Shown here piece after piece: positions 5,069 through 51,717 of a stretch of DNA of 64,000 nucleotides. The translations under genes and the position numbers were made by a program. The stretch covers positions 56,479,665-56,543,664 of the forward strand of contig OX419757.1 of assembly GCA_948567375.1 (NCBI GenBank). The letters run 5' to 3'. The notes under the pieces are model-generated. The model was given only the letters and a program-made list of their open reading frames with translations. It had not been told where the DNA came from and ran no database searches. Positions within the stretch are counted from its first letter, which is position 1, and every line of letters starts with the position of its first letter. The DNA comes from Lunularia cruciata (Eukaryota > Streptophyta > Marchantiopsida > Lunulariales > Lunulariaceae).

Positions 5069-5116
5069 AGAGACCTTCACTTTGAGGACAAAGTGAAAAC
5101 TTAGTCCGGGGGTAAA

Positions 5117-16380: not shown

Positions 16381-16830
16381 ATAATCAGATTGCTTACCAC
16401 TCTCAACTCAACTCAACTCAGATCAGTACTTGATCTGTCACTCTATAAACTGCCAACAATTGGGCACTGATTACAGTCAAGCCACACCCACTCAAGCATA
16501 GAGAATCCAGGTGACGCTCGCCGGCCTCTATCCACCATAGCCAGGAATTCGAAGGCTCAACATCAGAGAAGTGAGCTCTTTGGAGCTCACTTCAAAACTA
16601 TACCCCCTGGACTCAAGCTAGCTCTAAAACCCTAATGGTCCCGCTGACAGCACACTCAATGGTGCAAACGGTGCAAAGTGACGGTGGGCCCCACCGTGAA
16701 GTCAGTACCCTGAACACAAAATCTGAGCTTTGGAAAGTAGTCTCTGAGAAACTGCTGAAATAACTCTAACTACTATCATTGGAACTTTAGTGTCCAAGCA
16801 TCTAGATGCGGCACTACAAATTGCATGACA
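16381..16830 (-). repeat. 3' LTR of E1
   Basis: The minus-strand start TGTCATGCAATTTGTAGTGCC is at 16830 and the end is at 16381. It aligns with the 5' LTR (27648-28098) and with the E2 5' LTR. A stem-loop with 11-bp arms (GAAGTGAGCTC / GAGCTCACTTC) lies at 16568-16593. The outer end is altered and abuts the extra segment 16286-16380. Confidence 0.8.
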
Positions 16831-17106
16831 GCTATCATGCGTATATACATTGTTACACAACATACATTGTTGTCAACATCATACACTATAGAAGCACAAC
16901 TCACACATAAGTCATACATAGACTCTAAAGTGCCACAATCTCCTCCCTAGCTGGCGGTTAGGTCCCTCTAACTCCAGATAGCCATCTACTCTAAGTATAT
17001 GGTATACCCTCAAATGGGTAAAGATCAGGAGGCCTGGTGCTATGGAGCCCCATCGTTAGTTGCCTGTCTGAAATCTATACCATATAAAGAATGAACTAGC
17101 TATAGG

Positions 17107-17250
17107 TCAAGTACATCTAGGACATAACCACTGTCCTTGATGAACCACCGTGAGGGAAGGAGTCATACATGCCATATGTCATCCTCTCAAACAGCTATCA
17201 CACACTAACATAGTAGCAACTCCACCAGAAGAGCCACATAACGTACACCT
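17107..17250 (-). other. PHD-finger-like module at the 3' end of E1 coding region
   Basis: Downstream of the integrase the minus strand shows the spacing Cys-x2-Cys, about 12 residues, Cys-x2-Cys (LVCDSC), His-x2-Cys (HMAC), then WLCPRC. This is the Cys4-His-Cys3 pattern of PHD zinc fingers, with the usual Trp two residues before the last Cys pair. PHD fingers often read histone H3 tails. In chromoviruses a chromodomain occupies this position, so a targeting role is a reasonable inference. The same pattern is at 37205-37352 in E2. Confidence 0.65.
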
Positions 17251-17589
17251 CAAGCCTGTACATACAAGTGCCAAGCTTGGGTCCATAGTACTATCAATGT
17301 TTGGGAGGTGGCATGGTGCACAATTGCGCACATGATCCTTCCAAATAACACCATCACGTCCTTCTTACACAAGGACTCTAGATGGCAAAACCTTGCGCAC
17401 TCTCAAGATAGTGCGGCCTGTAGAAACATCAAGTGTTGTCGATGCTGTGTGTTGTAGATATACATAGTCGCTTGGATGAAATTGATGGATCAAGGGTTTA
17501 TAACCTCCTCCTTGAATGGTAGCATAGCGTAAAGTATCTCTATGCTGAGCAATCGCCAAGTTCTCAAAGGCCATCGGCATCACTCTCCA

Positions 17590-20150
17590 AAAGATCTTTG
17601 TCCGCTAAGAACATGCACTCATCCATACATCGGGGTCATCCAAGTCCAAAACTACAGTAGCATCTTGACGAATGGTTGTAGGTAAATTTGGATCTCATCC
17701 ATAGAGTAGAAAGTATGGAGAGAAGGATGCTAAGGAGGCTTGCCGGCTGAACCGATAGCCCATGGCCAACCAAGGTAATTGGAGATCCCAATCTCCCAAG
17801 TGGCCTCTCTGCAAACCATAATTTGCAATCTTCTCTTCACCGTCTGAACCACTCTCTTTGCTAAGCCATCTGCCTTAGAGTGATCTCGGAATGTAGTACA
17901 ATGATCAATCAAAGCCTTGTCACACAAGACCTGAAACTCCCCCAAGAACTTTGTACCTTGATCAGTCAAAACCTCAGTTGGTGCACCAAAATGACTAAGA
18001 ACTTGATCCAGGAACAAGTAAGTTGTCCCTTCACTAGACTTGTCAGGAAGTGCCACCAACTCAATCCACTTGGAGAAGTGCTCTACCATCACCAAAACAT
18101 ACCGATGATGTCTCACAGTCAGCGGTAAAGGTCCAGCGAAGTCCAAACTCCAACAATAACCCAATCCCATGATAGGTAATGGGTGTAATTGTGGCGTAGG
18201 AGCATTGAATGATGCTCTAACTTGGTCACAAACCACACATCTGGCAACAAACTGTTGTACCTTGGTCTGCATACCGTGCCACCAATAATGACTCTGGAGT
18301 AAGCTATACGTACGCTTTAGTCCAAAATGTCCTAGCTCCTCATGAGCATGACGGACCAACTGTGGTCTCTGTGATGGAAGTGGTACTACTCGCACTCTAC
18401 CATCCTCCCATACACGCAAAAGGTGTCTACTTTCCAATCTGAACCGTCTGGCTTGCTGAAGAACACGGTCTCTCTCCTTGGCCCCAATTGTGCCACCCAC
18501 GACACTAGTGCAAATATAGTCCATCACTAAGACATCGTCATGAATGTCTCGTTGAACTATACCAATATCTTTACTCTCTAGATCTATGACCTCAATAACT
18601 CCTCCTGTATGCAGTGAGAAAGATACCACCAAAGCCTCTGCAAATATACACAGAAAGGCCGATGCACGCAAACCTGGCACCGTCTCCTCATCTGTCTCAC
18701 CATGCCAACATGCTCCGGTCTGATCTTGCTGGCTGGGACATGGGTTTCTACTCAACCCATCTGCATCACGGTTCACTACTCCAGGTCTATGAACAACCGT
18801 GAAATCATACTCCTATAAAATCAAAGCCCATTGTGCAAGCTTCCCTGAAAGCTTGTTGGACTCCATCAACCACTTCAGCGGCTGATGATCAGTGATGAGA
18901 GTGAAGGGGTTACCAAATAGGTAACATTGGAAATGTGCTACTGCCCAAATTGCTTCCAAGCACTCTCCCTCATATGAACTATACTTTGCCTCCGCTGAAT
19001 TGTTGGAGCGACTAGCATAGGCCACCACAAACTCCTTCTCCTCATCATCATCCTGGGTGAGCACCGCTCCAAGCCCCAACATACTCCAATCAGTGTGAAC
19101 CTGAAATGCTCGTCCCTTGATTGATCTCCTCAAAATAGGAGCAGATGTCAACCTCTCCTTGAGCTCTACAATAGCTCTCTCTTGCTCATCTCCACAACAC
19201 CACTCTTGTGTAAGCTTGGTCAGCTTTGTCAAGGCCTTGGCAATGGCACTAAATCCTCTAACATAGCAGCGATAGAAGTTTGCCAACCCAAGGAATGCTC
19301 ACACTCTGCTCACATCTGTAGGCCAAGGAATATGTGCAATAGCCTCCACCTTGGTCTACTGAACACCAAGTCCTCCGGGGTAGATAGTGTGACCCAAATA
19401 TTGAACCTGCTCGTGAAAGAACCTACACTTCCCAAGATGTAATTTGAGTCCATGAGATCTCAACCTCTCAAACACCTCCAACAGTTGTCTCTCATGCTCC
19501 TCCACAGTAGTGCTATAAACCAAAATGTCATCAATATAGCACCAAGAAAAATCCAATCCAGCTAGGATCCTATCCATGACCCTCTGTACTCAACATGAGC
19601 GTTCTTTATCCCAAATGGTAAGAACCTCCATTGATATAACACATCCTTCCCGTGGGGATCAATAACCCAAAATGTTGTCTTGGACTTATCCTCCTCCTTG
19701 ATCGGCAACTGATGATATCCTGCTTGAAGATCCAAAGTATTGAAGACCTTTGCATGCCCAATTGCATCAAAAATCTCCTCCGGTGTAAGCATGGCATACC
19801 GATCAGCCCTAGTCTGTCGGTTGATAGGACGGTAATCTCCACACATACACCTATCTGTATAGTTGCCATGCATATCCTTCTTGGCTGGCATCACTATCGC
19901 TGATGCATACTCTCCATGTGAAATCTCCACCAAACCAGCCTCAAAAAGGTCACTACTCCGGCTCCGAATCAATATCCTCTTTTTATCACTATATCGATAA
20001 GGACGTTGGAAAACTGGTGTGTTGCTAGTCAGCTCAATCCGTATACCAAGTCCCTTCAGAGCACCCAAATCCTTTATAATGAAGGAAAAACAACTTGTGT
20101 GACTCCTCAAGAACCTCCAAACCCTACGTCTTTCCTCTCCAGTAAGCTTG
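17590..20150 (-). pseudogene. E1 reverse transcriptase - RNase H - integrase region (fossil)
   Basis: Reverse transcriptase motifs: FNTLDLQAGYHQLPI, FLPFGIKNA, then CYIDDILVYS. RNase H: FQVHTDWS, YASRSNN, YEGECLEAIWAV, LITDHQPLKWL. Integrase: HHCC-type finger HAHEELGHFG ... CVVCDQ, then the catalytic core WSLDFAGPLPL, VLTDQGTKFLGEF and a late glutamate region. Order and motifs are of Ty3/gypsy type. Broken. Confidence 0.85.
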
Positions 20151-20499
20151 GGTCCAAGATCTGGCTCCCAAGTATCCTCTGTAACTATAGTAGGAGTGGA
20201 AGACGTACTGACTGACTGGTACACTGGGCCCTTGGGAGCAATAGTGTCATGCTCCCGACCACTAGAGGTCCCAACCTCTGTGTGAAAAACTCCCTCCACT
20301 CTGGCTGCAAGCTCCACACGTCCTCTGGCTGCATCCCATGTGGACCAAGGGTGTAATCCAAGTAGCCCACGCTCACCTGGATGGACTCCAAGTAGACCAC
20401 TCTCCCTAGTAGCTACTGAATGTGTCCCAAGAATACCATGTCCACTCGGTCCATCGCCCCCAACATGTGCCTGAATTGTCTCAATAGGCAATGGGCTCA

Positions 20500-23440
20500 C
20501 AAGTGTCCGAGTGGTGATGCCTATCAAGCACATCCTATACTGCTCTGCCAAGCCAAGGCTCACAATCCAGGTCAAACAGTTCAGGTCCATAGCCTGACCT
20601 AACAACTGACGCTTGGATGCCTCTGACATTGCTGAAACAGCGGTAATACCGGTGTGAAAACCCATTGCCCGCTCTCTCTCATCAGCGTTGGGCTCCACCA
20701 ACTATTGTTACTATGTGTGACAACCCGACAAATATCACTTTTGCAGTAATCGTGTAAGTAAAGTTTGTTCCCGTAGAGATACGAGTCAGAAATGTCCAAA
20801 TATGAAGTCAAAGTAACAATTTAGTTCTTCTTGGTTGCGTCTTTAATCTCTCAAGTAGAAACCACACCCTGAAGAGAGTAACAAGCACTGACTTGCAGTC
20901 TTGTCACAAATTAACACTCCTTAATCACAACTCCATCAAATCTTTCCAAACAATCTTGATTGTGATGATTCAGGCTCTCCCGAAAACGGCATTTCACTAC
21001 AAAACGACTTTGCCTCAGAATTGTGTTCCACCTCTCCACTAAAGGCACAACTTCCTCGATTGAAATTGCTTCACATCAACTTCACACTACACTCACAAAT
21101 GCAGAATACTACCAACACTACAATTCCTCTCAGATTTGTCAAGGCATTGCTTCGATTGCACTTCACTCAGGATCAAACACACAGAATGAAGATCAAGGCT
21201 GTGGAATCTAACATCCAACAAGCACACTAACTTGCACTTTGAATTTCTCCAAACACTCACAAACACAATTACAAAGCTGATACTCAGAATCAAGCTCAAG
21301 CAACGAGCACTACTTCATAGCACTTCGCTTTATCTATTCTCAGAAATAATGAGCACTGAACAACAATTTCCTACGAATGCCACTCTTAAATAGTGAAGCA
21401 ATTGACAGTTCTAACAACTATACCGTTCTACAACAACTGTTCTAACCTGCAGATCCGAAATGACAATGCAACCTTTCATATCTATCTATTCAAATCTCAA
21501 ATCGGTTACTACTCTGATCCGATGTCTACTTCTTCCTTGGCTTTCAAACCCAAACCCGAAGTAATCTTACTTCCTACTACTCTGTCCTCGGGTTTCACAA
21601 CTCCTAATTCCTCCACTAATTCTAACATTTCTCCTTCCTAATATGAAATTCCTATCATAGTTAAGCCTTCTAAATCTCTATCTCCCAACCCACTCTTCTC
21701 TAAAGTGTCAAATGTCAAATCCAAAGACACTTGCACTCCTATCTCTCTTACTTCAGGTCTAACTATTATCAATTCTTTTGCTAATTCTACTATATCCTCA
21801 TCAAGAATTGTAATTGAAAGCATGAATACACTATCTACACCTTCAATTTGTAACCCACTTTCCCCTAATCACTCAAGTTACTAACCCGAAGACACTTACT
21901 ATCGGATCCTGCACTTCGGGTTTATTCACTATTGTTACTTCTCCTTCAATTTCTATCATATCTTCAATCAGAACTGAAATTGAAGTCATAGGTATTCTAA
22001 CTATCTTCTTTCTCTACTCTAACTTCCTCTGATCCCTCTGGCAAAACTCTCCAAGTCACCTTCATTGCACTCCGAGGTCCGCCTACCTCGGATTTAGTCA
22101 TCTTCATCTTGAGGCAAAGTCTCATGACCCAACGTCATGTGAACCCAAAGTCCGAAGTACGAAGTACGAAGTCACATTGACCCGAAGACACTTTGACCCG
22201 AAGTACATCTACTCCAGAAACTTCAAATGCTTGTTACTTATTCTACAGACCTCTAAACTTTGCGATTTTGGTGGCAACGGAAAGCCCTGGACGAGATGCT
22301 TCCAACGAGATATAGCAAGCTTGATTTGAACTTGTGTGCATTGAGATATGGCCCCTGCAAGAATCCTGACCTGCAACTTCTATTTCTCTTTCGGGTTTGC
22401 CCTCGTTCGGGTTTGCTCTCCTTAACGTCTGATCCGAGTTTTTCCCTCCTCTGACACGAAGTAAGCTTCTTTGGGTCTGATCTTAACTGAGCACTTCTTC
22501 CTCTTACATGAAGTCAACTTCATCGGGTCTGATCAAATCACAAGTTTGCAGTCATTTCTTCTCCATTTGCTTTCAATTTGGTTTCAGCAGTGCATTTCTT
22601 CTTCTAAACTCATCCAAAATGAAAAATGTGGGTACCACACTATGAGTCCCAAACAAGTCCAGGTCCTCCCTCTCGAAAAGCATGAGAGCTTGGGAAACTC
22701 ATGAGTGTGGGAAATGCGGCTCTAGGCTGTCCAACTAGGTTCACCACTGCCATAGGTGACCTATCAGCCACTACCACTGTCTGAGACTGACGCCCAACAT
22801 CCAAGATATCATCAACAACAATGTGGTACAGTCGCTGAATCCCATCATAAGCACATTGTAGAACCTCTTTGGGTAAGAGGTTCATCCACCAAAGACAAAG
22901 ACAATGAGCTCGTGATCCCACTCTGGCTGTATCTAACAATACAGCAGGTCCTATCCAAGAATGGACCTGACGTGTACTCGCCACCACTCTAGTGCAAGAA
23001 TCACCTATCAAAGGAACATTCTCCAAAAGTTAAGCTAGAGAAACAGATTGATGAACTTGGAGATGTCGTAGTATTTGTAACATCTCCCAAAACACACTAG
23101 AACAAGGATCCCGAAGACCTAATCCTCTACCAGCACGTGTATGTCCCTGACACGGCCATCCCGAAATCACCAAGTGAATAGTCCCATGTCTCTTTAGGTC
23201 ATGTGCCCCCAATAAGGAAATGTCTCCTAGTAGGGCCTTTTGGTAACCTCTGACTGCTAACATCGGTAATAACTCCGGATACCGATAGGCCAAGTGTGCC
23301 ACATGATGTAAAGAGACTCGCCTAGCAGTCTCATCTCTCTCTACATACAAGTACCTTTGTACTCGTATACCCGCCTGCAACACCGCAGTTAGTCCGGTGT
23401 TGATCCCACCAAACAACTCCAATAGGCATATCTCCTCTGC
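20500..23440 (-). other. Cytosine-5 DNA methyltransferase domain in E1 (fossil part, interrupted by solo LTR)
   Basis: Minus-strand motifs in order: motif I LLELFGGINTGL (about 23390-23425), acidic motif II-like YVERDETA, motif IV with WPCQGHTRAG (Pro-Cys-Gln codons at 23147-23155), motif VI ENV (23015-23023), a motif VIII-like stretch (VLLDTARVGSRAHCLCLWW), a motif IX-like FPTLMSFPSSHAF, then the C-terminal block ERAMGF...LLGQAMDLN (about 20560-20660). The order and the GI-x-V-x-RY spacing after motif I resemble DNMT3/DRM-type enzymes, which transfer a methyl group from S-adenosylmethionine to cytosine C5. The domain sits between protease and RT and is part of the same pol region, as in E2. 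Broken. Confidence 0.8.
20716..22639 (-). repeat. Solo LTR, C-like subfamily (1924 bp), inserted in E1
   Basis: The minus strand begins TGTGGTACCCACATTTTT at 22639 and ends GGGTTGTCACA at 20716. Flanking CTATG at 20711-20715 and 22640-22644 is an exact 5-bp target duplication. The terminal 20 bases and the last roughly 750 bases match the 3.8-kb LTR of element C, but the middle is shorter and largely different. A short frame at about 21638-21823 (TLEKSGLGDRDLEG) echoes the end of the C LTR reading frame. The promoter-like CACTATTTAAGAGTGG is shared with C. Confidence 0.88.
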
Positions 23441-23879
23441 TGGATACTGCCAAGCAATGAGTGTGGTATCCAAAGGTGTCAAAGCAATCACCTCTAGATG
23501 CTCATCCTCACACTCATCTCCTGATGGTATGAAGGCTCCATTCCAAGCCTACTACACCAACTGATCTGCATGTTGCTGCAATGCCTCCTCAGAACTCCAC
23601 AATGGAACATCCAAGGTGGATGGAACAATCCCACTCGTACTCCAAAGCCGAGTGATCTCCTCTGGTACTGGAGTATCCTCTACATGGGCATTCCCCTCCA
23701 ACAAGTCACCAAGCCACGTAACTGCACCATTGAAAGCTAAAACTGATGTTGCCATGGTCTCGGACTATAGTGAGCCAAGACTGCCACTATTGAAGCGTAC
23801 GGGTAGGCGACATACTTGTCCCTCACCAGACTGCCAACCAGGTCTATAAGAGGTTGTCTCCTCCCAATAGTCAATGCTG

Positions 23880-26380
23880 AAACCCATGGGGTATAACACC
23901 ACTCCCCCAACTAGCACATCATATGACTCAGCTATTGTTGCAATAGCCTGAGCTCTCACCACCGAGCTATCAGTCGGATGACCAGGCTGAACCTAGACAA
24001 CAAGCTCTCCATGTGTGATGTATTGTGTCAAACCACCACCTAGAGATGTTTGGATCTGAAATGGACACCTCCCCACATTGGTCTTTCGTAACTCCAGACC
24101 GACAACTACAGCCTTCCCCAACATAAAAGGCTGCACAATGGAGTCTAACAAGACTCTCTATGGTGTATAGACCTTCCCTTAAGGCCCCACCAAACAAAAA
24201 ATCCCCCTCTGGTTATCCAATAGGACAACACCAGGTGTAAATTGCACTCTCTCAAAGGCCGGTCTAGTTGGCAACTCCTCCAGTCTAGCCGCTACAGCCT
24301 GCCATAAACCACTGGTTGTTGAACGGATCCCATGCTCCTCAACCAAGTCAGCTCCACTACCAACCACCTCTGCTCTAGTAGTAGGAACTGCACCATCCCT
24401 ACTCTCACACAACATGGCAGCCAACTGGAACACTAGGGCTGGGTCGACTCCCAATGTAAACATATCACTGGTCAAAAACAAAGGACGCCACATAATCAGC
24501 TGAGCCGCCCCCAACATCATGCTAGACTTAGTCTGTGTAGGAGCAAGTGGCTGAGTAGCAAGTAGTCCATCATGTACTCCATCACCACCTACCACACCTG
24601 CATTGGGACGTCTAGGAACCATGGATGTCGTCTGCAATGCCTCAGATAGCATGAAAGATTGAGGAAGTCTGACCTGTCTCCCAGCCTCTCTTCTCTGTGG
24701 GTCCAACTCCACTGATGCTACTCTAGGCTCTCGAGCACGTACTGCACTCCTAGTCACTACTGCAGATGCATCCACCTATGCCGCTCCACACATAAAGTCC
24801 AAAGCATCTCTATCACCAACATATGAGGTGGAAGCCTCAACACCCGAATCTGATCTCCTCTGAGCAATAGCCATACTAGCCAATCTTTGCTCCAACTGCT
24901 CAATCCGCATAGCCATAACTGTGTCAGAAGTAAGGGCAAGTACTGCACCCCTACTAGGTATAGATCCTCTACCACCACCTCTACCACCTTGTCCTCCATG
25001 AATTGGAGCTCCTCTACTACCAGCCATAGCGGCCCTACCACTCCGTAACTCCGGGTGTAGGTCAAAACACCGGTCACTAGTGTGACCAAATCTGTGGCAG
25101 TGCTCACACTGCCTCTTTGCTGGATGTGATGCACTAGAATTATCAGGTCCGCTGCCCTGAGTACACTCTCTCCTATGGTGAGGTCCACCACAAGTCCAAC
25201 AAGCAACACCACCACTCACTAGCTGTTGCTGACTCAAAAATGAGGGTAAGGATCTAACTCTACTAGATCCTCCACTCGCTCCATAGGATCTGGGTTGTCC
25301 ACCTTGTCCTCGAAAACTAACTAGGCGTGGTGCACTCTGCTGCACTCTAGAAGAAGTCACAACCGTGGATGAGGTCTCCTTACCAAATCCAGATGTCACC
25401 ACTCTCTCCTCCACCATATTGAGCTCAATACGCTCAGCCAAACCACAAAGACTACTGCCAAAGTGGGCAAAGTAGCCTGCAATAATGTAGCATCATGAAC
25501 TCTACGTCATAACTCCTTGTCCAGTATCCCATACCAAAACTAGACTGCTTGGGCCTTAGTAACTCCTTGAGTGAAACTGATCAGCTGCCTCACGCGAGTG
25601 TATGCCTTGTGTAGGCTCTCTCTAGCCTTCTGCTGGAACTCTTGCAAGCTCCTCAGCTTGTAAGTCCGCACTCCCTGGTAGTTCTACCTCAAACATAGGA
25701 AGAACTCCACCATGGGGTAAAACCCCGGTACCACACCACCTCCTACAGCGGTACCTCCACTCGTAGTAGCACTAGTGCACCTCCACTAGCTCCGCCCACA
25801 CTACTTGAGCTAGAACTTGTAGGTACAGCCAATCTACTCCTGGCCACCAAGCCTGAAGTGATGGAGACATAATGTGGAGACCAACACTGTCTTCATAACT
25901 TGATCTCCTCCAAATGAGCTCTCCTTAACTCATGGTAGTCATCCATTGGCGGACCCTCCAAGTGCTAAAACAACTCCTTCCATGCCATGAAGGATGTGAA
26001 CAAAGCCGGATTCCGTATCTGCTACAGATCACACCAACTATCGAACTCCTGGATGAAGTTATCCAACTCAATGGTACCCACTGTACCAAAGTAACACCTA
26101 GGGCCTTTGGAGGCCCCATAAATCTTGTCCATGTCCTACAACAACGGTGCGAACACACCATGTTCACTCTCAACTGAATTAGCTCCTGTGTTGAACTCCA
26201 GCTCAAAGTCAATCTCCTCCCTCACTGGGACCTGAGATACAGGCTGATACCAAACACCACTCCGAGTAAACCCATTGCGTACTACAGGGCTAACTCCTTT
26301 GGAATCTCCAAAGAACTCCATCGTGACAAAGTAACCACAACAGCAAACCCAAACCACCAATTGCAACCACAAGTCGCAAC
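23880..26380 (-). pseudogene. E1 gag - protease region (fossil)
   Basis: The gag start (MEFFGDSKGVSP) is near 26321. Two zinc knuckles follow near 25050-25200: CWTCGGPHHRREC and CEHCHRFGHTSDRC. The protease region (about 23880-24180) carries an LLDS-type aspartyl site followed by a conserved VGGVVLYPMGFSIDYW stretch that may belong to the linker before the methyltransferase. Homologous to 31572-34100 in E2. Broken. Confidence 0.75.
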
Positions 26381-26874
26381 CGCAAGTGCCCCACCACCAC
26401 GTGCCAACACCAACAAAGCACCACCCACTAATGTAAATCTAACCGAGATAACTACACTAGGGGAAAGGGCAACCTGTAACCTGTCGTCATAACACGCACT
26501 CTCACGGTCTGCAGGTCATCACTTCCTGCCTCACTGGAGAGAAACAAAGGTAGTCTGACTGGTCATCACTCCAGCCTCACCATCGAGAGCACACCAGAGC
26601 ACCAATGCTCAAAAGTTAGGGCACCTCACACAAACATGATGCACAAACAGGAAATAGAGAATGGAGGGGATCCAATCACAAGAAATCTAAACAAAAACTC
26701 TAGATCTCATAACACAACACGAGACTAACTCTATCACCATTTGGCATTTGACATAAAAGAAGTTCGTATCTAAGTCCTAAGCTACAAGGATCACCAAGAA
26801 TGGGATCAAACTGCCTCTCCTAGCCAAAGCTACATGTGTATAGAAAACAGTGGCATAGTCACTATGACAACAAG

Positions 26875-26945
26875 TGAGGGTGGACCAGTTGGCTAGGGCA
26901 CCAGTCTAGGAACAAGAGATCTAGGGGTCAAACCTTGTTGCGCAC
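26875..26945 (+). repeat. tRNA-like (SINE-type) sequence in E1 leader, antisense to the element
   Basis: An A-box-like TGGCTAGGGCACC (from 26890) and a B-box-like GGGGTCAAACC (26924-26934) have tRNA-like spacing. No convincing full cloverleaf was folded by hand. The same sequence is present, also antisense, in the E2 leader (about 30960-31020), so it was already in the family ancestor. It could be a captured tRNA-derived SINE head or a chance match. Confidence 0.35.
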
Positions 26946-27647
26946 AATCTAGTAGGAAAGGCTGATTTTGCCAACCAATGACCAAGATCTACTCTAAACT
27001 AGCTAGTCTTATGCCAACAACCTGGCTTGTTGGTCCTTCTAGGCCTTCATAGCCCATAGCCCTATGCCTCGAAGCCTTTAAACGCCCAAATAAGGCCTTT
27101 CTTGTTGCCACTTCGAACCTCCTCCAAAATTGGCAAAACTTCTCCAAATTTGTGAAAGTCCTCCAAACTAGCAAAACTCCTCCAAATCTGGCCAAACAGC
27201 AAAAACTCCTCCAGATCTGGCCAAAATCTGACATAAAATCTGACATAATCCCTAAAGTTGGATGTCCGCCAAATCCCCCGCTAACTTTCCACTCGAGCTA
27301 AATTGACAACACGGGTTTTTCCAAATCACAAATTCATGAGAAGAGCTTCCCAACTCCACCTTCAATTTGACTTTTTGAGCCCAACTCGCAGCAAATTGGT
27401 CTTGCCTTCACCTCTTGAGCTCAAAATCACAACCATTGCTCGAAATTTGCTCCTTCTTTGCTCAAAATTTAGCTAGCGCTTCCGCACACCATCTGCCTAA
27501 CTGCCAAATGTACATCAATCGATTGAGCTTCTGCACACTAAGGAAACACTGAACTTGAATCAAGCTACCAACGATCCACCGAGCTTGGAGATACCACCAA
27601 CACTCAAAGTTCCTGCACCCGATTTCCCCCTGACTTCACTTCTCTGA
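26946..27647 (-). other. E1 leader between 5' LTR and gag
   Basis: Non-coding leader homologous to 30267-31000 in E2. It contains several short repeats of the type CTCCAAATCTGGCCAAA (about 27110-27240), also present in E2 (about 30690-30770). The base after the LTR starts the sequence TCAGAGAAG on the minus strand; I could not match this to a tRNA 3' end. Confidence 0.6.
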
Positions 27648-28098
27648 TGTAATCAGATTGCTTACCACTCTCAACTCAACTCAACTCAGATCAGTACTTG
27701 ATCTATCACTCTATAAACTACCAACAACTAGGTATTGATTATAGTCAAGCCACACCCACTCAAGCATAGAGAATCGAGGTGACGCTCGCCGGCCTCTGTC
27801 CACCATAGCCAAGAACTCGAAGGCTCAACATCAAAGAAGTGAGCTCTTTGGAGCCCACTTCAAAACTATACCCCCTGGACTTGAGCTAGCTCTGAAACCC
27901 TAACGGTCCCTCTGACGGCACACTCAACGGTGCGAATGGTGCAAAGTGACGGTGGGTCCCACCGTGAAGTCAGTACCCGGAGCACGAAATCTGACCTTTG
28001 GAAAGTAGTCTCTGAGAAACTATTGAAATAACTCTAACTACTATCACTGGAACTCTAGTGTTCGAGCATCTAGATGCGGCACTACAAATGGTGTGACA
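27648..28098 (-). repeat. 5' LTR of E1 (451 bp)
   Basis: The minus strand runs from TGTCACACCATTTGTAGTGCC (28098) to CAATCTGATTACA (27648). Length matches the E2 5' LTR (452 bp). It carries the same stem-loop as the other E LTRs (about 27836-27861). Confidence 0.85.
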
Positions 28099-29814
28099 TC
28101 TTCCTTCGGGTTTTGCTCGTCTTTTATAATACTTGTGCTAGTTCTTCCCTTTTCATTTCTTTGTCCTTTGTATTTTTTTCTTTTCTCTATAGGATATATT
28201 ATTTGGCTCAATCTCCTACCAAGCTTACGAAAGTCACAATTAGCTACCCTCACAGAGCTGACAAATTTACAAAACTTTGGACAAGATTAAGACGTTGATC
28301 AGCAGATAAAGCCTACTGAGCTACAACAAGATAAGCACCATTGATATTCATGACTGTAGCATACTTATGGGTAAAACAAAGAAGTTTAGGGTTAGGGCCA
28401 ACTCCTCTTGGTAATTTCTTGGTGGAATTCGGACTTGTGACTTGGTTTCATCATATAGTCGAAATAAGCAACACTTGCAAATGATCCTGCCTGCACCTGT
28501 GCTTTCCCAGTTTCATATGCACAAGTTGGAGAGTCCACTTTCCGTGGGAGAGGAGCAAGAGTGGTGGAGTATTGCCTGGTCCATGTCTCTGGATTTTCTC
28601 ATTAAAAAGATCCGATTGGCAGCCCGGGCTACTGTTACCCAGAGTGGTGCGCTTGGGCGACAGGACTAAGAAGATGGGTTCATATCATCCTTTGCAGCCG
28701 GATCAGTGTTCAGTCGGAGGCTTATGTACCGGGAAGAGATCTGCTACACCAGCACTTTTTACAGCATGTGAGAGGTCGAATAACGACCTCCGTTTTGCCT
28801 GGACCACTTGAAATCTCCAAAATCCCCAAACTTAAAGCTGTATGGTCTAGATGTGCATAAAGTAACAATTCAGCTCGAAATCATTTTCCTCAAAGCCAGA
28901 GGTACCCATGAAATTTCTTAGTGAACTCTCTAAAAACCTTTACGATAAAAATGTTTCTTTATATTACTAAATCGCGGCAAAGCACAGCGTCAAGAGGGAT
29001 AGCTAAATTAAAAAAGAATTAGAGAAGGGATTGATATTTGCTTTTAACTAGTTTTCAGTCATCTCTTATTCATTACTACTTTTTAAAGAGAAAAAAAGGC
29101 GACCACGTAGAAAAGAAGAAGAAGGATGGGAAGACCCTCTCAAGCCCAAGCCGAACATGGATGGGATGAGACAAAAAGAGGTAAAATGGGGCTACGCCCC
29201 AATAGTAATAGTATCGGTACGAGAAATCTGCCCTACAGATGTAAATACTTTTCAGTCATCTCTTATTATTTGTAATGTCACTCCCTTTTGACCCAACTAC
29301 AGTATGAGTTCCCATACTTTAAAACGATGAATGTTTTATGTACACTTTGAAGACGCCTGAGTTTAGTTCCGATATTTGGGACAAAACTATTATATTTAGA
29401 TTGAAAGTAAAATAAACTTGCATTACACATTCTCACTTGGGACATATGAATAATGTTATGCTACTGCCTTCATACACGCGGTTTGTATCACTCGTTTAAT
29501 AATGACATGGAGTTGATGATAATAAAACTTACATAGCATACCAAAAGTAGGGGAACATCTATTGATGACATATTTAATGTAGTAGCTACTACTTTCAAGA
29601 TAGTCTCATTTCATAATACATATTCTGAACACGGTCTAAGAATAACATCCTAAAAATTTGTTCATAGATCCCTGATCTATCAGATATTAGTGCAAATTAT
29701 TTGCTAAAAGCCGTTAGAGTACCAGTACAGACGCTATCCCCTGACATTATCATGCAATGAAAGCAAAATTACATATACAAGGCACCAACGGATATAGTTA
29801 TGCACGTTTTGCAT
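28099..29814. other. Spacer between the head-to-head E elements
   Basis: No retroelement domain was seen. Frames at 28442-28669 and 28572-28811 are short and overlap each other in different frames; neither is recognisable. A motif at about 29095-29205 (AAAGGCGACCACGTAG ... AAATGGGGCT) is a diverged copy of one at 11930-11980. This may be original host DNA. Confidence 0.4.
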
Positions 29815-30266
29815 TGTCACGCCATTTGTAGTTCCGCATCTAGCTGCTCGGACACTGGAGTTCCAGTGATAGTAGTTAGAGTTATTCTAGTAGTTTCTTA
29901 GGGACTACTTTCCGACAGTCTGATTTGGTGTTTGGGGTACTGACTTCACGGTGGAGCCCACCGTCACTTTGCACCGTTTGCACCGTCGAGTGTGCCGTCA
30001 GCGGGACCGTTAGGGTTCCAGTGCTAGCTCGAGTCCAGGGGGGTATAGTTTCAAAGTGAGCTCCAGAGAGCTCACTTCTCTGATGTTGAGCCTTCGAGTT
30101 CCTGGCTATGGTGGACAGAGGCCGGCGAGCGTCACCTGGATTCTCTATGCTTGAGTGGGTGTGGCTTGACTGTAATCAGTGCCCAATTGTTGGTAGTTTA
30201 TAGAGTGACAGATCAAGTACTGATCTGAGTTGAGTTGAGTTGAAAGTGTTAAGCAATCTGATTACA
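29815..30266 (+). repeat. 5' LTR of E2 (452 bp)
   Basis: Begins TGTCACGCCATTTGTAGTTCC and ends CAATCTGATTACA. It includes the stem-loop AAGTGAGCTC ... GAGCTCACTT (30053-30078) and a short run of GAGTT pentamers (TTGAGTTGAGTTGA) near its end. Confidence 0.85.
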
Positions 30267-31571
30267 TCAGAGAAGAAGAAGAAGTCAGGGGGAAATCGGG
30301 TGTAGGAACATTGAGTGTTGGTGGTATCTCCAAGCTCGGTGGGTCGTGGTAGCTTGATTCAAGTTCAGTGTTTCCCTAGTGTGCAGAAGCTCGTTCAAGT
30401 GATTCAGATTTGGCAGTTAGGCGGACGATGTGCGGAAGCGCTGGCCAAATTTTGAGCAAAGAAAGAGCAATTTTTGAGCAGTGTTGTGATTTTGAGCTCA
30501 AGAGGTGAAGGTAGGACCAATTTGATGCGAGTTGGGCTCAAAAAGTGAAATTGAAGGTGGAGTTGGGAAGCTCTTCTCATGAAATTGTGATTTGGAAAAA
30601 CCCGTTTTGTCAATTTGGCTCGAGTGGAAAGTTAGCGGGGGATTTGGCGGACAGCCATCTTTAGGGTTTACGTCAGATTTTACATCAGATTTGGAGGAGT
30701 TTTTGCTGTTTGGCCAGATTTGGAGGAGTTTCGCAGATTTGGAGAAGTTTTGCCAACTTTAGAGGAGGTTTGAAGTGGCAACAAGAAAGGCCTCATTTGG
30801 GCGTTTAGAGGCTTTGAGGCATAGGGCTGTGGGCTATGAGAGGCTACGAAGGCCTAGAAGGGCCAGCAAGCCAGCTTGCTGGCATGAGGCTAGCTACTTT
30901 AGAGTAGATCTTGGTCATTGGTTGGCAAAATCTACCTTTCTTGCTAGATTGTGCGCAATAGGGTTTGACCCCTAGATCTCTTGTTCCTAGACTGGTACCC
31001 TAGCCAACTGGTCCACCCTCACTTGTTGTCCTAGTGATTGCGCCACTGTTATCTATACACATGTAGCTTTGGCTAGGAGAGGCAGTTTGATCCCATTCTT
31101 GGTGATCTTGGTAGCTTAGGACTTAGATACAAACTGCTCTTATGTCAAATGCCAAATGGTGGTAGAGTCAGTCCCGTGTTGTGTTATGAGATGGAGGGTT
31201 TTTGTTTAGATTTCTTATGATTGGATCCCCTCCATATCTCTGCTTCTTGTTTGTGCATCACGTTTGTGTGAGGTGCCCTGACTTTTGAGCGTTGGTACTT
31301 TGGTGTGCTCTCGGTGGTGAGGCTGGAGTGATGACCAGTCAGACTACCTTTGTTTCTCTCCGGTGAGGCAGGAAGTGATGACCTGCAGACCGTGAGAGTG
31401 CGTGTTATGATGGCAGGTTACAAGTTGCCTTTCCCCTAGTGTAGTTATCTCGGTTAGAGTTACATTAGTGGGTGGTGTCTAGTCGGTGTTGGCACTTGGT
31501 GGTGCACTTGCGGTTGCGACTTGCGGTTGCAGTTGGTGGTTCGGGTTTGTTGTTGCAGTTACGTGGTCACG

Positions 31572-34100
31572 ATGGAGTTCTTTGGAGATTCCAAAGGAGT
31601 TAGCCCTGCAATACGCAGTGGGTTTACTCGGAGTGGTGCTCGGTATCAGCCAGTATCTTAGGTCCCAGTGAGGGAGGAGATTGACTCTGAGTTGGAGTTC
31701 GACACAGGAGCTGATTCAGTTGAGAGTGCACTTGGTGTGTCCGCACCGTTGTTGTGGGACATGGACAAGATTTATGGGGCCTCCAAAGGCCCTAGGCGTT
31801 ACTCTGGTACAGTGGGTACCATTGAGTTGGATGACTTCATCCAGGAGTTTGATAGTTGGTGTGATCTGCAACAAATGCGGAACCCGACTTTGTTCACACC
31901 CTTCATGGCATGGAAGGGGTTGTTTCAGCATCTTGACGGTCCACCGATGGATGATTACCATGAGTTCAGGAGAGCTCATTTGGAGGAGATTGAGTTATGG
32001 AAACAATATTGGTCTCCACACTATGTTTCCATCACTTCAGGCTTGGTGGCCAGGAGTAGATCAGCTGTACCCACGAGTTTTAGTTTGAGTAGTGTTGGTC
32101 GAGCTAGTGGAGGTGCACTAGCTAGAGATAGTGCTACTACGAGTGGAGGTACCGCTGCAAGAGGTGGTGTGGTACCGGGGTTTAACTCCATGGTTGAGTT
32201 CTTCCTATGTTTGAGGTAGAACTACCAAGGAGTGCGGACTGACAAGCTGAGGAGCTTGTAGGAGTTCCAGCGGAAGGCTAGAGAGAGCCTATGCGAGGCA
32301 TACACTCGCATGAGGCGGCTGATCAGTTTCACTCAGGGAGTTACTGAGGCCCAAGCAGTCCAGTTTTGGTATGGGATACTGGACAAGGAGTTGCGACGTA
32401 GAGTTCGTGATGCTACGTTGTTGCAGGCTACTTCGCCCACTTTGGCAGTAGTCTTTGGTTTGGCTGAGCGTATTGAGCTCAACATGGTGGAGGAGAGAGT
32501 GGTGACATCTGGATTTGGTAGAGAGACCTCATCCACGGTTGTGACTTCTTCTAGAGTGCAGCAGAGTGCATCACGCCCAGTTGGTTTTTGAGGACAGGGT
32601 GGACAGCCCAGATCCTATGGAGCGAGTGGAGGGCCTAGTGGAGTTAGACCCTTACCCTCATTTTCGGGTCAGCAACAGCCAGTGAGTGGTGGTGTTGCTT
32701 GTTGGACTTGTAGTGGACCTCATCATAGGAGAGAGTGTACTCAGGGCAGCGGACCTAATACCTCTGGTGCATCACAGCCAGCACAGAGGCAGTGTGAGCA
32801 TTGCCACAGATTTGGTCACACTAGTGACCGGTGTTTTGACCTACACCCGGAGTTACGGAGTGGTAGGGCTGCTATGGCAGGTAATAGAGGAGCTCCAATT
32901 CATGGAGGACGAGGTGGTAGAGGTGGTGGTAGAGGATCTACATCTAGTAGGGGTGTAGTACCTGCCCTTACTTCTGACACAACTATGGCTACTCGGATTG
33001 AGCAGTTGGAGCAGAGATTGGCTAGTATGGCTATTGCTCAGAGGAGATCAGATTCGGATGCTAAGGCTTCCACCTCATATGTTGGTGATAGAGATGCTTT
33101 GGACTTCATGTGCGGAGCACCACAGGTGGATGCATCTACAACAGTGACTAGGAGTGCAATACGTGCTCCATAGCCTAGAGGAGCATCAGTGGAGTTGGAC
33201 CCACAGAGAGGAGAGGTTGGGAGACAGGTCAGACTTCCCCAGTCTTTCATGCTATCTGAGGCATTGTAGACGACATCCATGGTTCCTAGACGTCCCTGTG
33301 CAGGTGTGGTGGGTGGTGATGGACTACCTACTAGTCGGCCACCTACTACTACACAGATTGAGTCTAGCATGATGTTGGGGGCGGCTCAGCTGATTATGCG
33401 GCATCCTTTGTTTTCAGCCAGTGACATGTTTACATTGGGAGTTGACCCAACCCCAGTGTTCCGGTTGGCTGCCACGTTGTGTGAGAGTAGGGATAGTGCA
33501 GTTCCTACTACTAGAGCAAAGGTGGTTGGTAGTGGAGCTGACTTGGTTGAGGAGCATAGGATCCGTTCAACGACCAGTGGTTTATGGCAGGCAGCAGCGG
33601 CTAGACTAGAGGAGTTGCCAGCTAGACCAGCCTTTGAGAGAGTGTGGTTTACACCTGGTGTTGTCCTATTGGATAACCAGAGGGGGATTTTTTGTTTGGT
33701 GGGACCTTCAAGGAAGGTCTATACACCACAGAGAGTCTTGTTAGACTCTGGTGCGCAGCCCCTTATGTTGGAGAAGGCTGCAGTTGTCGGTCTGGAGTTA
33801 CGGAAGACCGATGTGGAGAGGTGTCCATTTCAGATCCAGACATCTCTAGGTGGTGGTTCGACACAGTACATCACACGTGGAGAACTTGTTGTCCAGGTTC
33901 AGCCTGGTCATCCGACTGATAGCTCGGTGGTGAGAGCTCAGGCTATTGTGACGATAGCTGAGTCATATGATATGCTAGTTGGGGGAGCAATGTTATACCC
34001 TATGGGTTTCAGCATTGACTATTGGGAGGAGACAGCCTCTTATAGACCTGGTTGGCAGTCTGGTGAGGAACGGGTATGTCGCCTACCAGTACGCTTCAGT
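31572..34100 (+). pseudogene. E2 gag - protease region (fossil)
   Basis: The gag part opens with MEFFGDSKGVSP and contains a WD-x-KIYG ... FDSWCDLQQM core. Two zinc knuckles, CWTCSGPHHRREC and CEHCHRFGHTSDRC, lie at about 32697-32850 and are followed by a Gly/Arg-rich stretch. The protease shows LLDSGAQPLML (about 33738-33770). Broken. Confidence 0.75.
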
Positions 34101-34439
34101 AGTGGTAGTTTTGGCTCACTACAATCCGGTTCCATGGCAGCATCAGTTTTAGCTTTCAGCGGTGCAGTTACTTGGCCTGGTGACTTGTTGGAGGGGAATG
34201 CCCATGCATACTCCAGTACCAGAGGAGATCACTCGGCTTTGGAGTACGAGTGGGATTGTTCCATCCACCTTGGATGTTCCATTGTGGAGTTCAGAGGAGG
34301 CATTGCAGCAGCATGCAGATCAGTTGGTGCAGCAGGCTTGGAGTGGAGCCTTCATACCATCAAGGGATGAGTGTGAGGATGAGCCTCCAGAGGCGATTGC
34401 TTTGACACCTCTAGATACCACACTCATTGCTTGGCAGTA

Positions 34440-35420
34440 TCCAGTAGAGGGGATATGTCTATTGGAGTTGTTTGGTGGGATCAGCACCGGACTAGCTACG
34501 ATGTTACAGGCGGGTATCCGAGTACAGAGGTACTTGTATGTAGAGAGGGATGAGACTGCTAGGTGAGTCTCTCTACATCATGTGGCACACTTGGCCTATT
34601 GGTATCCGGAGTTATTACCAATGTCAATAGTCAGAGGTTACCAAAAGGCCTTACCAGGAGACATTTCCTCACTGGGGGCGCATGACCTAGAGAGACATGG
34701 GCCTATTCACTTGGTGATTTTTGGGTGGCCATGTCAGGGACATACACGTGCGGGCTGTGGTTTGGGTCTTCAAGATCCTCGTTTTGGTGTGTTTTGGGAG
34801 ATGTTACGGATACTACAACATCTCCAAGTTCATCAATCTGTTTCTCTAGCTTACCTTTTGGAGAACGTTCCTTTGATGGGTGATTCTCGCACTAGAGTGG
34901 TGGCGAGTACACATCAGGTCCATTCTTGGATGGGACCTGCTGTATTGTTAGATGCAGCCAGAGTGGGATCATGGGCTCATCGTCTTTGTCTTTGGTGGAC
35001 GAACGTTTTACCCAGAGAGGTTCTATAGCGTAGTTATGATGGGATTCAGCCACTAGACCACATTCTTGTTGATGATATCTTGGATGCTGGACGTCAATCT
35101 CAGACAGTGGTAGTGGCTGATAGGTCACCTATGGCAGTGGTGAACCTAGTTGGACAGCCTAGAGCTGCATTTCCCACACTCATGAGTTTCCCAGGCTCTC
35201 ATGCTTTTTGAGAAGGAGGACCTGGACTTGTTTGGGACTCACAGTTACAGCAGTTGGTGGAGCCCAACGCTGATGAGAGAGAGCGGGCGATGGGTTTTTG
35301 CACCGGTATTACCGCTGTTCCAGTAGTGTCAGAGGCATCTAGGCATTAGGTGTTAGGTCAGGCTATGGACCTGAACTGTTTGACCTGGATTGTGAGCCTT
35401 GGCTTGGCAGAGCAGCGTAG
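34440..35420 (+). other. Cytosine-5 DNA methyltransferase domain in E2 (fossil part)
   Basis: Motifs in order: motif I ICLLELFGGISTGL (about 34459-34500) followed by GIRVQRYLYVERDE; motif IV GWPCQGHTRAG (Pro-Cys-Gln codons 34729-34737, Cys being the usual nucleophile); motif VI LLENVPLMGD (ENV 34861-34869); motif VIII-like VLLDAARVGSWAHRL (about 34945-34990); motif IX-like FPTLMSF (about 35170-35195); and a C-terminal block with ERAMGF and LGQAMDLN (about 35280-35385). DNMT3 enzymes share LFDGIATGL, the following GIxVxRY, ENV and an IDAKEVSAAHRARYFWG stretch, so this is closer to DNMT3/DRM than to DNMT1. No regulatory domains of host DNMTs are attached. Broken. Confidence 0.82.
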
Positions 35421-35859
35421 GATGCGCTTGATAGGCATCACCACTCGGACACTTGTGAGCCCTATGCCTATCGAGACGATTCAGGCACATGCTGGGGGCG
35501 ATGGACCGAGTCGACATGGTATTCTTGGGACACATCCGGTAGCTACTAGGGAGAGTGGTCTACTTGGAGTCCATCCAGGTGAGCGTGGGCTACTTGGATT
35601 ACACCCTTGGTCCAGCTTGATGGAGTCCGATAAGCTTTCAAGGAAGCTTGCATGATGGGCTCTGATTTTACAGGAGTATGATTTCACGGTTGTTCACAGA
35701 CCTGGAGTGGTGAACCATGATGCAGATGGGTTGAGTAGAAACCCATGTCCCAGCCAGCAGGATCAGACCGGAGCACGTTGGCATGGTGAGACAGATGAGG
35801 AGATGGTGCCAGGTTAGCATGCATCGGCCTTTCTGTGTATATTTGTAGAGACTTTGGTT

Positions 35860-37030
35860 GTATCTCTCTCAACGCATATAGGAGGAGTTATTGAGGTCAC
35901 AGATCTAGAGAGTGAAGATATTGGTACAATTCAGCGAGACATTCATGAAGATGTCTTAGTGATGGACTATCTTTGCACTGGTGTTGTGGGTAGCACAGTT
36001 GGGGCCAAGGAGAGAGACCGTGTTCTTCAGCGAGCCAAACGGTTCAGATTGGAGGGTAGACACCTTTTGCGTGTATGGGAGGATGGTAGAGTGCGAGTAG
36101 TACCACTTCCATCACAAAGACCACAGTTGGTCCGTCATGCTCATGAGGAGCTAGGACATTTTGGAGTAAAGCGTACATATAGCTTACTTCAGAGTCATTA
36201 TTGGTGGCGCGGTATGCAGACCAAGGTGCAGCAGTTTGTTGCCAGATGCGTGGTTGCGACTGAGTTAGAGCATCATTCAATGCTCCTACGCCACAGTTAC
36301 ACCCATTACCTATCATGGGATTGGGTTACCATTGGAGTTTGGACCTCGCCGGACCTTTACCGCTGACTGTGAGACATCATCGGTATGTTTTGGTGATGGT
36401 GGAGCACTTCTCCAAGTGGATTGAGTTGATGGCACTTCTTGACAAGTCTAGTGAAGGGACAACTTATTTGTTCCTGGATCGAGTTCTTCGTCATTTTGGT
36501 GCACCAGCTGAGGTTTTGACTGATCAAGGTACAGAGTTCTTGGGAGAGTTTCAAGTCTTGTGTGACAAGGCTTTGATTGATCATCGTACTACATCCCGAG
36601 ATCACCCTGAGGCAGATGGCTTAGCAGAGAGAGTGGTTCAGACAGTGAAGAGAGGATTGCAAAAGTATGGTTTGCAAAGAGGCCACTTGGGAGATTGGGA
36701 TCTCCAGTTACCTTGGTTGGCCATGGGCTATCGGTTCAGCCGGCAAGCCTCCTTAGCATCCTTCTCTCCATACTTTCTACTCTATGGACGAGATCCAGAT
36801 TTACCTACAGCCATTCGTCAAGATGCTACTGTAGTTTTGGACTTGGATGACCCCAATGTATGGATGAGCGCATGTTCTCAGCGGGTAGAGATCTTTCGGA
36901 GAGTGATGCCGATGGCCTTTGAGAACTTGGCAATTGCTCAACATAGAGATACTTTACGCTATGCTTCCATTCAAGGAGGAGGTTATAGACCCTCGATCTG
37001 TCGATTTCATCCAGGCGACTATGTATATCT
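35860..37030 (+). pseudogene. E2 integrase region (fossil)
   Basis: HHCC-type finger HAHEELGHFG (about 36140) ... a Cys pair, then the catalytic core with WSLDLAGPLPL, VLTDQGTEFLGEF and a downstream EADGLAERVV stretch, then a C-terminal basic/aromatic part (FHPGDYVYLQ). Ty3/gypsy type. Broken. Confidence 0.8.
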
Positions 37031-37204
37031 ACAGCAGACAGCACCGACGACACTTGATGTGCGTGAGGTTTTGCCATCTGGAGTCCTTGTGTTAGAAGGA
37101 CGTGATGGTGTTGTTTGGAAGGATCATGTGCGCAATTGTGCACCATGCCACCTCCCAAACATTGATGGTACTATGGACCCAAGCTTGGCACTTGTACGTG
37201 CAGG

Positions 37205-37352
37205 CTTGAGGTGTATGTTATGTGGCTCTTCTGGTGGAGCTGCTACTATGTTAGTGTGAGATAGCTGTTCGAGAGGATGGCATATGGCATGTATGATTCC
37301 TCCCCTCATGGTGGTTCCTCAAGGACAGTGGTTATGTCCTAGATGTACTTGA
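37205..37352 (+). other. PHD-finger-like module at the 3' end of E2 coding region
   Basis: Shows LRCMLCGSSGG, then a downstream DSC, HMAC and WLCPRC at PHD-like spacing, immediately after the integrase tail. The same pattern is present in E1 (17107-17250). Histone-tail reading is the common PHD role; a targeting function here is inference. Confidence 0.6.
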
Positions 37353-37518
37353 CCTATAGCTAGTTCATTCTTTATATGGTATAGATTGCAGACAGGCGAC
37401 TATTGATGGGGCTCCATAGCACCGGCCTCCTGATCTTTACCCGTTAGAGGGTATACCATATACTTAGAGTAGATGGCTATCTGGAGTTAGAGGGACCTAA
37501 CCGCCAGCTAGGGGGGCA

Positions 37519-37622
37519 ATTGTGGCACTTTAGAGTCTATGTATGACTTATGTGTGAGTTGTGCTTCTATAGTGAATGATGTTGACAGCGATGTATGTTG
37601 TGTAGCGATGTATATACGCACG
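37519..37622 (+). repeat. E family pre-LTR segment in E2
   Basis: Follows the polypurine-like AGCTAGGGGGGCAAT. It begins TGTGGCACTTTAGAGTC and is shared with about 16835-16945 and 16286-16380. In E1 the 3' LTR begins directly after this segment. Confidence 0.65.
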
Positions 37623-38039
37623 ACAACACAAGTGAACGATATAATAAGAAATCAGTTATTGTGGTACGAAGGCCTTGTATAGAATGTTTTTTCCTTATAG
37701 ATAAATGCTCCTATAGTTGTTTCCAGGACAAACAGAGGGTAACTAAATAATTTCCTCAAATCTACCAATAATTATGGTAGGTATCCGATATCAAGTTCAT
37801 AAACACAAGGTTATCTTAAGATAATATCTTTAAATCCTCTCTCATAGCATATGAGAACTTCAACTTAATTGTTATTTATCCACTTCTAGGTTGGGTCCAG
37901 GTGCAAATATAAGAAGGGCATCATGGTAGGAAAGGTCCTTCTGGTTAATTTCATTTTTAGATAAGATCTTCTCCATGCAAATTATATTTAAAAAATTAAG
38001 AGTCTTGTTCCAAATAGCTATAATTCTTTATCTTAACCA
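37623..38039. other. Short unassigned stretch
   Basis: AT-rich and no frame recognised. It may be the decayed internal part of remnant G. Confidence 0.4.
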
Positions 38040-51669: not shown

Positions 51670-51717
51670 TTTACCCCCGGACTAAGTTTTCACTTTGTCC
51701 TCAAAGTGAAGGTCTCT

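What the first reader, a model, noticed from the sequence alone, without database searches (positions are those of the whole stretch)
34440..35420. Ty3/gypsy element E2 carries a DNMT3-like cytosine-5 methyltransferase domain
Seen: LLELFGGISTGL, then GIRVQRYLYVERDE, WPCQGHTRAG, LLENVPLMGD, a VLLDAARVGSWAHRL stretch, FPTLMSF and a C-terminal ERAMGF / LGQAMDLN block, in the canonical order of C5 methyltransferases, lying between protease and integrase of a gypsy element. Known: motif I, PCQ/PCN, ENV and the C-terminal G-rich block define the C5-MTase fold, and the TGL and VSAAHRARYFWG-like features are DNMT3 traits. From memory, retrotransposon-borne methyltransferases have been reported in a few eukaryotes (dinoflagellates, a charophyte alga), so the principle may not be new, but this family and type may be. 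Inference: the element could have methylated its own or host DNA to evade or exploit silencing.
Basis: partly seen in the sequence, partly recalled or inferred. Interest (0 to 1): 0.92.

Follow-up and report, generated by a model that had tools for sequence, protein, structure and literature searches.

The report
Plant retrotransposon carrying DNA-methylating enzyme
A decayed plant retrotransposon in this window carries its own DNMT3-type DNA methyltransferase, belongs to a lineage found in liverworts, peat moss and green algae, and has an unusual split-repeat layout that suggests a circular step in its life cycle.

The parts
34441..35420 (+). E2: DNMT3-like C5 cytosine methyltransferase domain, broken by 4 in-frame stops
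29815..37625 (+). E2: whole element A-internal-B, without the second A-B and without RT
29815..30263 (+). E2: repeat A (begins TGTCA, ends just before the primer-binding site)
30264..30275 (+). E2: primer-binding site, 12-nt complement of 30075-30086 inside A (self-primer)
31572..33170 (+). E2: gag region with CCHC-like knuckles (broken frame)
   Evidence: only a sub-threshold Pfam gag hit (14.2 bits, cut-off 24.1)
33603..34100 (+). E2: protease region (LLDSGAQP), placed by similarity to Marchantia and L001 proteins; no Pfam hit of its own
35614..35617 (+). E2: point where RT and most of RNase H (1471 bp in E1) are missing
36109..36608 (+). E2: integrase zinc-binding and core (rve) domains
37212..37346 (+). 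E2: PHD finger at integrase C-terminus
   Evidence: PF00628, 34.0 bits, cut-off 24
37507..37516 (+). E2: polypurine tract two bases before B (GCTAGGGGGG, shared with L001)
37519..37625 (+). E2: repeat B, ends GCACGACA
16293..28098 (-). E1: second copy, A1-internal-B1-GC-A2-B2
27651..28098 (-). E1: repeat A1
27636..27650 (-). E1: primer-binding site, exact 15-nt complement of 16560-16574 in A2
22640..23461 (-). E1: MTase N-terminal part (one in-frame stop; motifs I, IV and VI intact, motif VIII arginines changed)
20718..22638 (-). E1: unrelated nested insertion splitting the MTase (bounds approximate)
20527..20717 (-). E1: MTase C-terminal part
18807..19846 (-). E1: reverse transcriptase and RNase H (frame shift and stops)
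17892..18158 (-). E1: integrase core
17113..17247 (-). E1: PHD finger
   Evidence: PF00628, 36.5 bits
16833..16939 (-). E1: repeat B1 (ends GATA where B2 and E2 end GACA)
16831..16832 (-). E1: GC between B1 and A2, centre of the abutted-end palindrome
16383..16830 (-). E1: repeat A2
16293..16382 (-). E1: repeat B2, joined directly to A2
28099..28102 (.). E1: 4-bp target-site duplication AAGA, left copy (right copy 16289-16292)

Best explanation
SHOWN: window 34441-35420 is a broken DNMT3-type cytosine-5 methyltransferase domain. It is native to a lineage of Ty3/gypsy-type elements whose polyprotein order is Gag-PR-MTase-RT-RNaseH-IN-PHD. INFERRED: the RNA primes its own reverse transcription from a stretch of repeat A, giving cDNA with B-GC-A at each end. 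The cDNA ends are joined into a circle. The DDE integrase recognises the internal palindrome GACA-GC-TGTC and inserts A-int-B-GC-A-B (E1); a one-repeat circle, or later B-by-B recombination, gives A-int-B (E2). The MTase, made with Gag-PR, is carried into the particle and methylates the new cDNA before integration, so that the copy enters the nucleus already marked like host heterochromatin. The PHD finger would tether the integrase to a histone H3 state. Both window copies look dead.
For: Identity. Native to the lineage: the same place in the 8 Marchantia, Calypogeia and Sphagnum proteins tabulated, MTase 49-72% identical, PR 44-73%, RT/RNase H pieces 56-80% where present; PR-MTase rows group apart from RNaseH-MTase/MTase-IN rows, 100/99. 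Kept catalytic: motif IV Cys in 128 of 129 rows with a letter there (4 more gapped), ENV Glu in 133 of 133. Split repeats and TSD. Self-primer: 15 nt in E1 (against A2), 0 of 2000 shuffles reach 13, 0 of 2115 interior windows reach 12; 13 nt in L001, 0 of 2000 shuffles reach it, 0 of 1316 coding windows reach 12. The B-GC-A junction in L001 reads CACGACA-GC-TGTCACG, matching the E2 ends GCACGACA and TGTCACGC. E1's A2-B2 join equals the A end before the primer site plus the B start after the purine tract, to within one ambiguous base. L001 has an open gag-PR-MTase frame, one in-frame stop, then an open RT-RH-IN-PHD frame.
Against: No activity data. The K. nitens element enzyme showed no activity in yeast, judged inconclusive by its authors (PMC5890265). 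CpG o/e gives no clear footprint: E1/E2 0.37-0.45, window 0.41, MTase-less gypsy stretches 0.13, 0.13, 0.57 and 0.70. The full A-int-B-GC-A-B form rests on one copy (E1), and its B1 end reads GATA, not GACA. E2's flanks show no clear TSD. A 4-bp TSD match has a 1 in 256 chance. L001's circular contig could be an assembly collapse of many copies, and it shows only one A and one B. E1's own A1 pairs with its primer site over only 10 nt, and E2's pairing (12 nt) was not tested against shuffles.
Confidence: 0.6

Rival explanations
1. The MTase acts on host chromosomal DNA (in trans), for example methylating host regulators or defence loci, rather than on the element's own cDNA.
For: Symbiodinium element DNMT3 domains methylate yeast genomic DNA when given a nuclear signal (PMC5890265). 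A PHD finger, as recalled a chromatin reader, sits in the same element.
Against: In L001 the MTase is made in the Gag-PR frame before a stop and in many relatives it lies in the frame next to IN, both pointing to the particle. The K. nitens methylome was land-plant-like.
Confidence: 0.17
2. The domain is kept for binding, not for methyl transfer (cDNA or RNA chaperone, or dimer scaffold).
For: The Pro of motif IV, usually invariant (recalled), is Glu in 70 of 129 relatives. E2 keeps one and E1 none of the two motif VIII arginines seen in most relatives, though both copies are decayed.
Against: Catalytic Cys in 128 of 129 and ENV Glu in 133 of 133 rows.
Confidence: 0.1
3. The substrate is RNA (genomic RNA or a tRNA) rather than DNA.
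For: RNA methylation was considered for SymbioLINE enzymes by the authors of PMC5890265.
Against: Nearest relatives are the DNA enzymes DNMT3A/3B; DNMT2 is far weaker (E 0.004 against 7e-24).
Confidence: 0.06
4. The repeat layout is an accident: an ordinary LTR element truncated or rearranged in E1 and E2, with standard linear integration.
For: Only one full copy in the window; purine tract and primer site lie where an LTR element would have them.
Against: E1 and E2 start and end at the same bases (TGTCA...GACA), E1 is flanked by AAGA on both sides, the B-GC-A junction recurs in L001, and the same layout is stated for K. nitens elements.
Confidence: 0.07

Closest known systems
KnitGypsy-Dnmt3 of Klebsormidium nitens (de Mendoza et al. 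2018, PMC5890265)
   Same: DNMT3-type MTase in the Pol ORF of a Gypsy element; repeats stated to be arranged as in DIRS elements while the domains are those of Gypsy.
   Different: Here in a lineage with land-plant members; MTase between PR and RT, PHD finger at the integrase end, self-primer and B-GC-A junction described.
SymbioDIRS-Dnmt3 (dinoflagellates, PMC5890265)
   Same: Element-borne DNMT3 in Pol, split repeats, two domain orders.
   Different: Uses a tyrosine recombinase; here the integrase is a DDE/rve type.
Human DNMT3A/DNMT3B catalytic domain
   Same: Best sequence and structure match; un-permuted motif order.
   Different: 19-26% identity in the structure alignments listed; no ADD or PWWP hit in the pieces scanned; longer stretch between motifs I and IV.
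Tf1-type self-primed Ty3/gypsy elements (recalled)
   Same: 5'-region stretch complementary to the primer-binding site.
   Different: Those have ordinary LTRs and, as recalled, no methyltransferase.

Membership tests
C5 cytosine methyltransferase (PF00145) | Profile score above curated cut-off | tested here: met
   30.4 and 28.2 bits for E2, 25.8 for the E1 part, cut-off 22
C5 cytosine methyltransferase (PF00145) | Motifs I, IV (PC), VI (ENV), VIII, X in canonical order | tested here: met
   (motif names recalled)
C5 cytosine methyltransferase (PF00145) | Fold | tested here: met
C5 cytosine methyltransferase (PF00145) | Methyl transfer activity | not testable with these tools
   both window copies are broken
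DNMT3 | Closer to DNMT3 than to DNMT1, DNMT2, DRM or bacterial enzymes | tested here: met
   profile A2 against PDB: DNMT3A 7e-24, DNMT3B 9e-22, 4onj (plant DRM, recalled) 1e-11, DRM2 4e-8, HaeIII 3e-8, HhaI 4e-7, DNMT2 0.004; no row named DNMT1 among 57 at E<=1
DNMT3 | Grouping with host plant DNMT3 in a tree | not tested
   no host plant DNMT3 sequence was obtained; only human DNMT3A (partial) and M.HhaI as references, both on long branches
Host plant DNMT3 gene | C-terminal DUF3444 beside the MTase (PMC6453930, passages) | tested here: not met
   no DUF3444 hit in the window pieces or in L001
Ty3/gypsy | RT, RNase H and rve integrase in that order | tested here: met
   E1, L001
Ty3/gypsy | Ordinary LTR at both ends | tested here: not met
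   E1 is A-int-B-GC-A-B; E2 is A-int-B
DIRS | Split direct repeats | tested here: met
   E1
DIRS | Tyrosine recombinase | tested here: not met
   rve DDE integrase instead; no phage-integrase hit in the pieces scanned
KnitGypsy-Dnmt3 | DNMT3 in a Gypsy Pol plus DIRS-like repeats | tested here: met
KnitGypsy-Dnmt3 | Sequence kinship with the K. nitens copies | not tested
   no row named K. nitens or the 120 of 139 rows listed; unnamed rows cannot be excluded

The most novel reading that the evidence does not exclude
A self-primed retroelement lineage of land plants and green algae does not integrate the linear cDNA of an LTR element. It joins the cDNA ends into a circle that its DDE integrase opens at an internal abutted-end palindrome (B-GC-A), so that it is inserted in circularly permuted form, and it carries a DNA methylation writer (DNMT3) and a histone reader (PHD) to pre-mark that circle and choose its chromatin.
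Probability: 0.4. Interest if true: 0.88.

Novelty: new variant of a known kind. Interest (0 to 1): 0.72.

Why it matters
DNA methylation is the usual weapon against retrotransposons, so a lineage that keeps a catalytic-looking DNMT3 in its polyprotein, in Marchantia, Calypogeia, Sphagnum and several green algae, extends a trait reported from one charophyte to land plants and chlorophytes. The Marchantia copies make its purpose testable in a genetic model. The B-GC-A junction shared with a divergent relative, together with a DDE integrase, raises a concrete question about how such elements integrate.

Full report

The element. The window holds a second copy, E1, on the minus strand (28098-16293), about 90-93% identical to E2 in the aligned blocks. 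E1 shows what E2 has lost: reverse transcriptase and most of RNase H lie between the MTase and the integrase. E1 also carries a 1.9-kb nested insertion inside its MTase. The order is gag-PR-MTase-RT-RNaseH-IN; gag and PR are placed by similarity and motifs, not by Pfam hits above cut-off. Both copies end the integrase frame with a PHD finger above Pfam's cut-off (36.5 and 34.0 bits, cut-off 24), which the finding did not mention. tblastn of the E2 domain against the window finds only E2 and E1, and ten other ORFs scanned, several gypsy-type, show no PF00145. By their stops, frame shifts, deletion and insertion both copies look dead.

Relatives. Three protein searches gave 203 distinct proteins (41 of 51 candidates; 51 of 7996; 139 of 7996, of which 120 were listed). 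Named sources are Marchantia polymorpha and M. paleacea, Calypogeia fissa, Sphagnum fallax and S. troendelagicum, Haematococcus, Monoraphidium, Cymbomonas, Closterium and one Spirochaetia MAG (P0203, likely contamination). Ids with the prefix Chrzof1 I take, from recall, as Chromochloris. Two domain orders appear: PR before MTase, and RNase H before MTase, often with IN and PHD behind it. The tree of 137 rows used 133 of the 203 proteins; the other 70 had too little of the domain, and six named rows were kept whatever their length. The order could be read in 89 of the 133 rows. Of these, 22 of 23 PR-MTase rows fall on one side (support 93) and 66 of 66 RNaseH-MTase or MTase-IN rows on the other (96); 44 rows had no readable order (36 on the second side, 7 on the first, 1 elsewhere). 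The exception, P0086, is a long branch. In a careful tree of 43 chosen rows the split has 100/99 support, and the window pair is sister to 13 rows (97/93) from Marchantia, Sphagnum, Calypogeia and one unnamed source. The host of the window is therefore probably a bryophyte or near it; this is inference. The catalytic Cys is present in 128 of 129 rows with a letter there and the ENV Glu in 133 of 133, which argues for long selection on catalysis.

The ends. E1 does not have ordinary LTRs. It reads A1 (448 bp), internal, B1 (107 bp), GC, A2 (448 bp), B2 (90 bp), with 92% identity between the A copies and 97% over 78 bp between the B copies. Its outer ends are TGTCA...TGACA, flanked by AAGA on both sides (a 1 in 256 chance). 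At the inner junction B1 ends GATA where B2 and E2 end GACA. E2 starts and ends at the same places but is A-int-B only, without a clear TSD. Directly after A lies a stretch that is the exact reverse complement of 15 nt inside A2; E1's own A1, decayed there, gives 10 nt and E2 gives 12. None of 2000 shuffles reached 13 nt and none of 2115 interior windows reached 12. This is the signature of self-priming as in Tf1 (recalled). A purine tract lies next to B. The A2-B2 join in E1 is the end of A before the primer site plus the start of B after the purine tract, to within one ambiguous base, which is what end-joining of the linear cDNA would give.

Independent check. A scan of the genome-contig collection found one relative matching the whole domain, L001, a 9285-bp contig binned as a cyanobacterium and most likely from a contaminating eukaryote. 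It has a 127-bp exact end overlap, an open gag-PR-MTase frame (PF00145 45.9 bits; protease hits below cut-off), a single in-frame TAG, and then an open 1047-aa RT-RNaseH-IN-PHD frame. The stop context AAG-TAG-CAA-TCA fits the tobamovirus type of leaky stop (recalled). So the MTase would be made with Gag and PR, and the rest by readthrough. In E1 the frame is open from MTase into RT (ORF 19562-20701). L001 shares the purine tract (GCTAGGGGGG), the junction CACGACA-GC-TGTCACG, and a 13-nt self-primer not reached in 2000 shuffles. At 49% MTase identity this is good support that junction and self-primer are functional parts. Its circular contig may be a collapse of many copies and proves nothing about circles; it shows one A and one B, so it does not test the second A-B.

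How it may work. Reverse transcription from the self-primer would make B-GC-A at both cDNA ends. The observed insert instead starts at A and ends at B, so the integrase must have cut inside, at the palindrome GACA-GC-TGTC, after the cDNA ends were joined. A two-repeat circle gives E1's form. A one-repeat circle, or recombination between B copies, gives E2's. The MTase would methylate the cDNA in the particle. Its benefit (hiding as host-like DNA, protection, or choosing a quiet but heritable state) is open, as the 2018 authors also say (PMC5890265, part 4 of 7). CpG content decides nothing: E1 and E2 (0.37-0.45) lie between MTase-less gypsy stretches of 0.13 and of 0.57-0.70. E1-E2 differences are 307 transitions to 46 transversions over 4348 aligned bases, and 68 of 141 CG sites changed, which fits decay by methylation of dead copies.

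Known and new. De Mendoza et al. 2018 (PMC5890265; parts 1-4 of 7 read) described KnitGypsy-Dnmt3 in K. nitens: DNMT3 in the Pol of a Gypsy element with DIRS-like repeats. The window's element is of that kind. [quoted passage not shown] 12 of 19 passages seen). In ten searches of the open-licence library I saw no report, in the listings or in the passages opened, of such elements in liverworts, Sphagnum or chlorophytes, nor of the PHD finger, self-primer or B-GC-A junction in them. Subscription papers, preprints and supplements were not covered. I therefore rate it a new variant of a known kind.

Noticed in passing
window 20718-22638: Nested insertion in E1, about 1.9 kb, similar (87-88%) to parts of repeats at 45534-46560 and 63254-63996.
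   Followed up: no
window 1-5802 and 50984-56758: Inverted pair of gypsy elements 98.7% identical, one with an open 1290-aa gag-PR-RT-RNaseH frame (52682-56554), CpG o/e only 0.13, no MTase hit.
   Followed up: partly
window 42779-46276 and 60498-63996: Direct repeats 88% alike; the ORFs of 344, 218 and 325 aa tested there have no Pfam hit.
   Followed up: no
window 6073-7577 and 39838-41578: Cluster of short direct and inverted repeats shared by two places.
   Followed up: no
element MTases, mainly of the RNaseH-MTase type: The Pro of the PCQ motif, usually invariant (recalled), is Glu (WECQ) in 70 of 129 rows with a letter there; 41 of 64 in the RNaseH-MTase/MTase-IN rows, 1 of 21 in the PR-MTase rows.
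   Followed up: partly
L001:3489: In-frame TAG in the context AAG-TAG-CAA-TCA between MTase and RT. Of 11 Marchantia proteins listed, five (P0045, P0046, P0048, P0049, P0053; the last three named as partial) end 71-73 residues after the MTase, one (P0051) 11 residues after it, and five (P0050, P0052, P0055, P0062, P0081) run on.
   Followed up: partly
L001 (CADCWO010000201.1): A probable eukaryotic retroelement contig binned into a cyanobacterial MAG; P0203, named from a Spirochaetia MAG and bearing IN and PHD domains, is likely the same kind of contamination.
   Followed up: partly
L008-L024: Viral contigs with partial C5-MTase matches of 27-50% identity, presumably phage enzymes.
   Followed up: no
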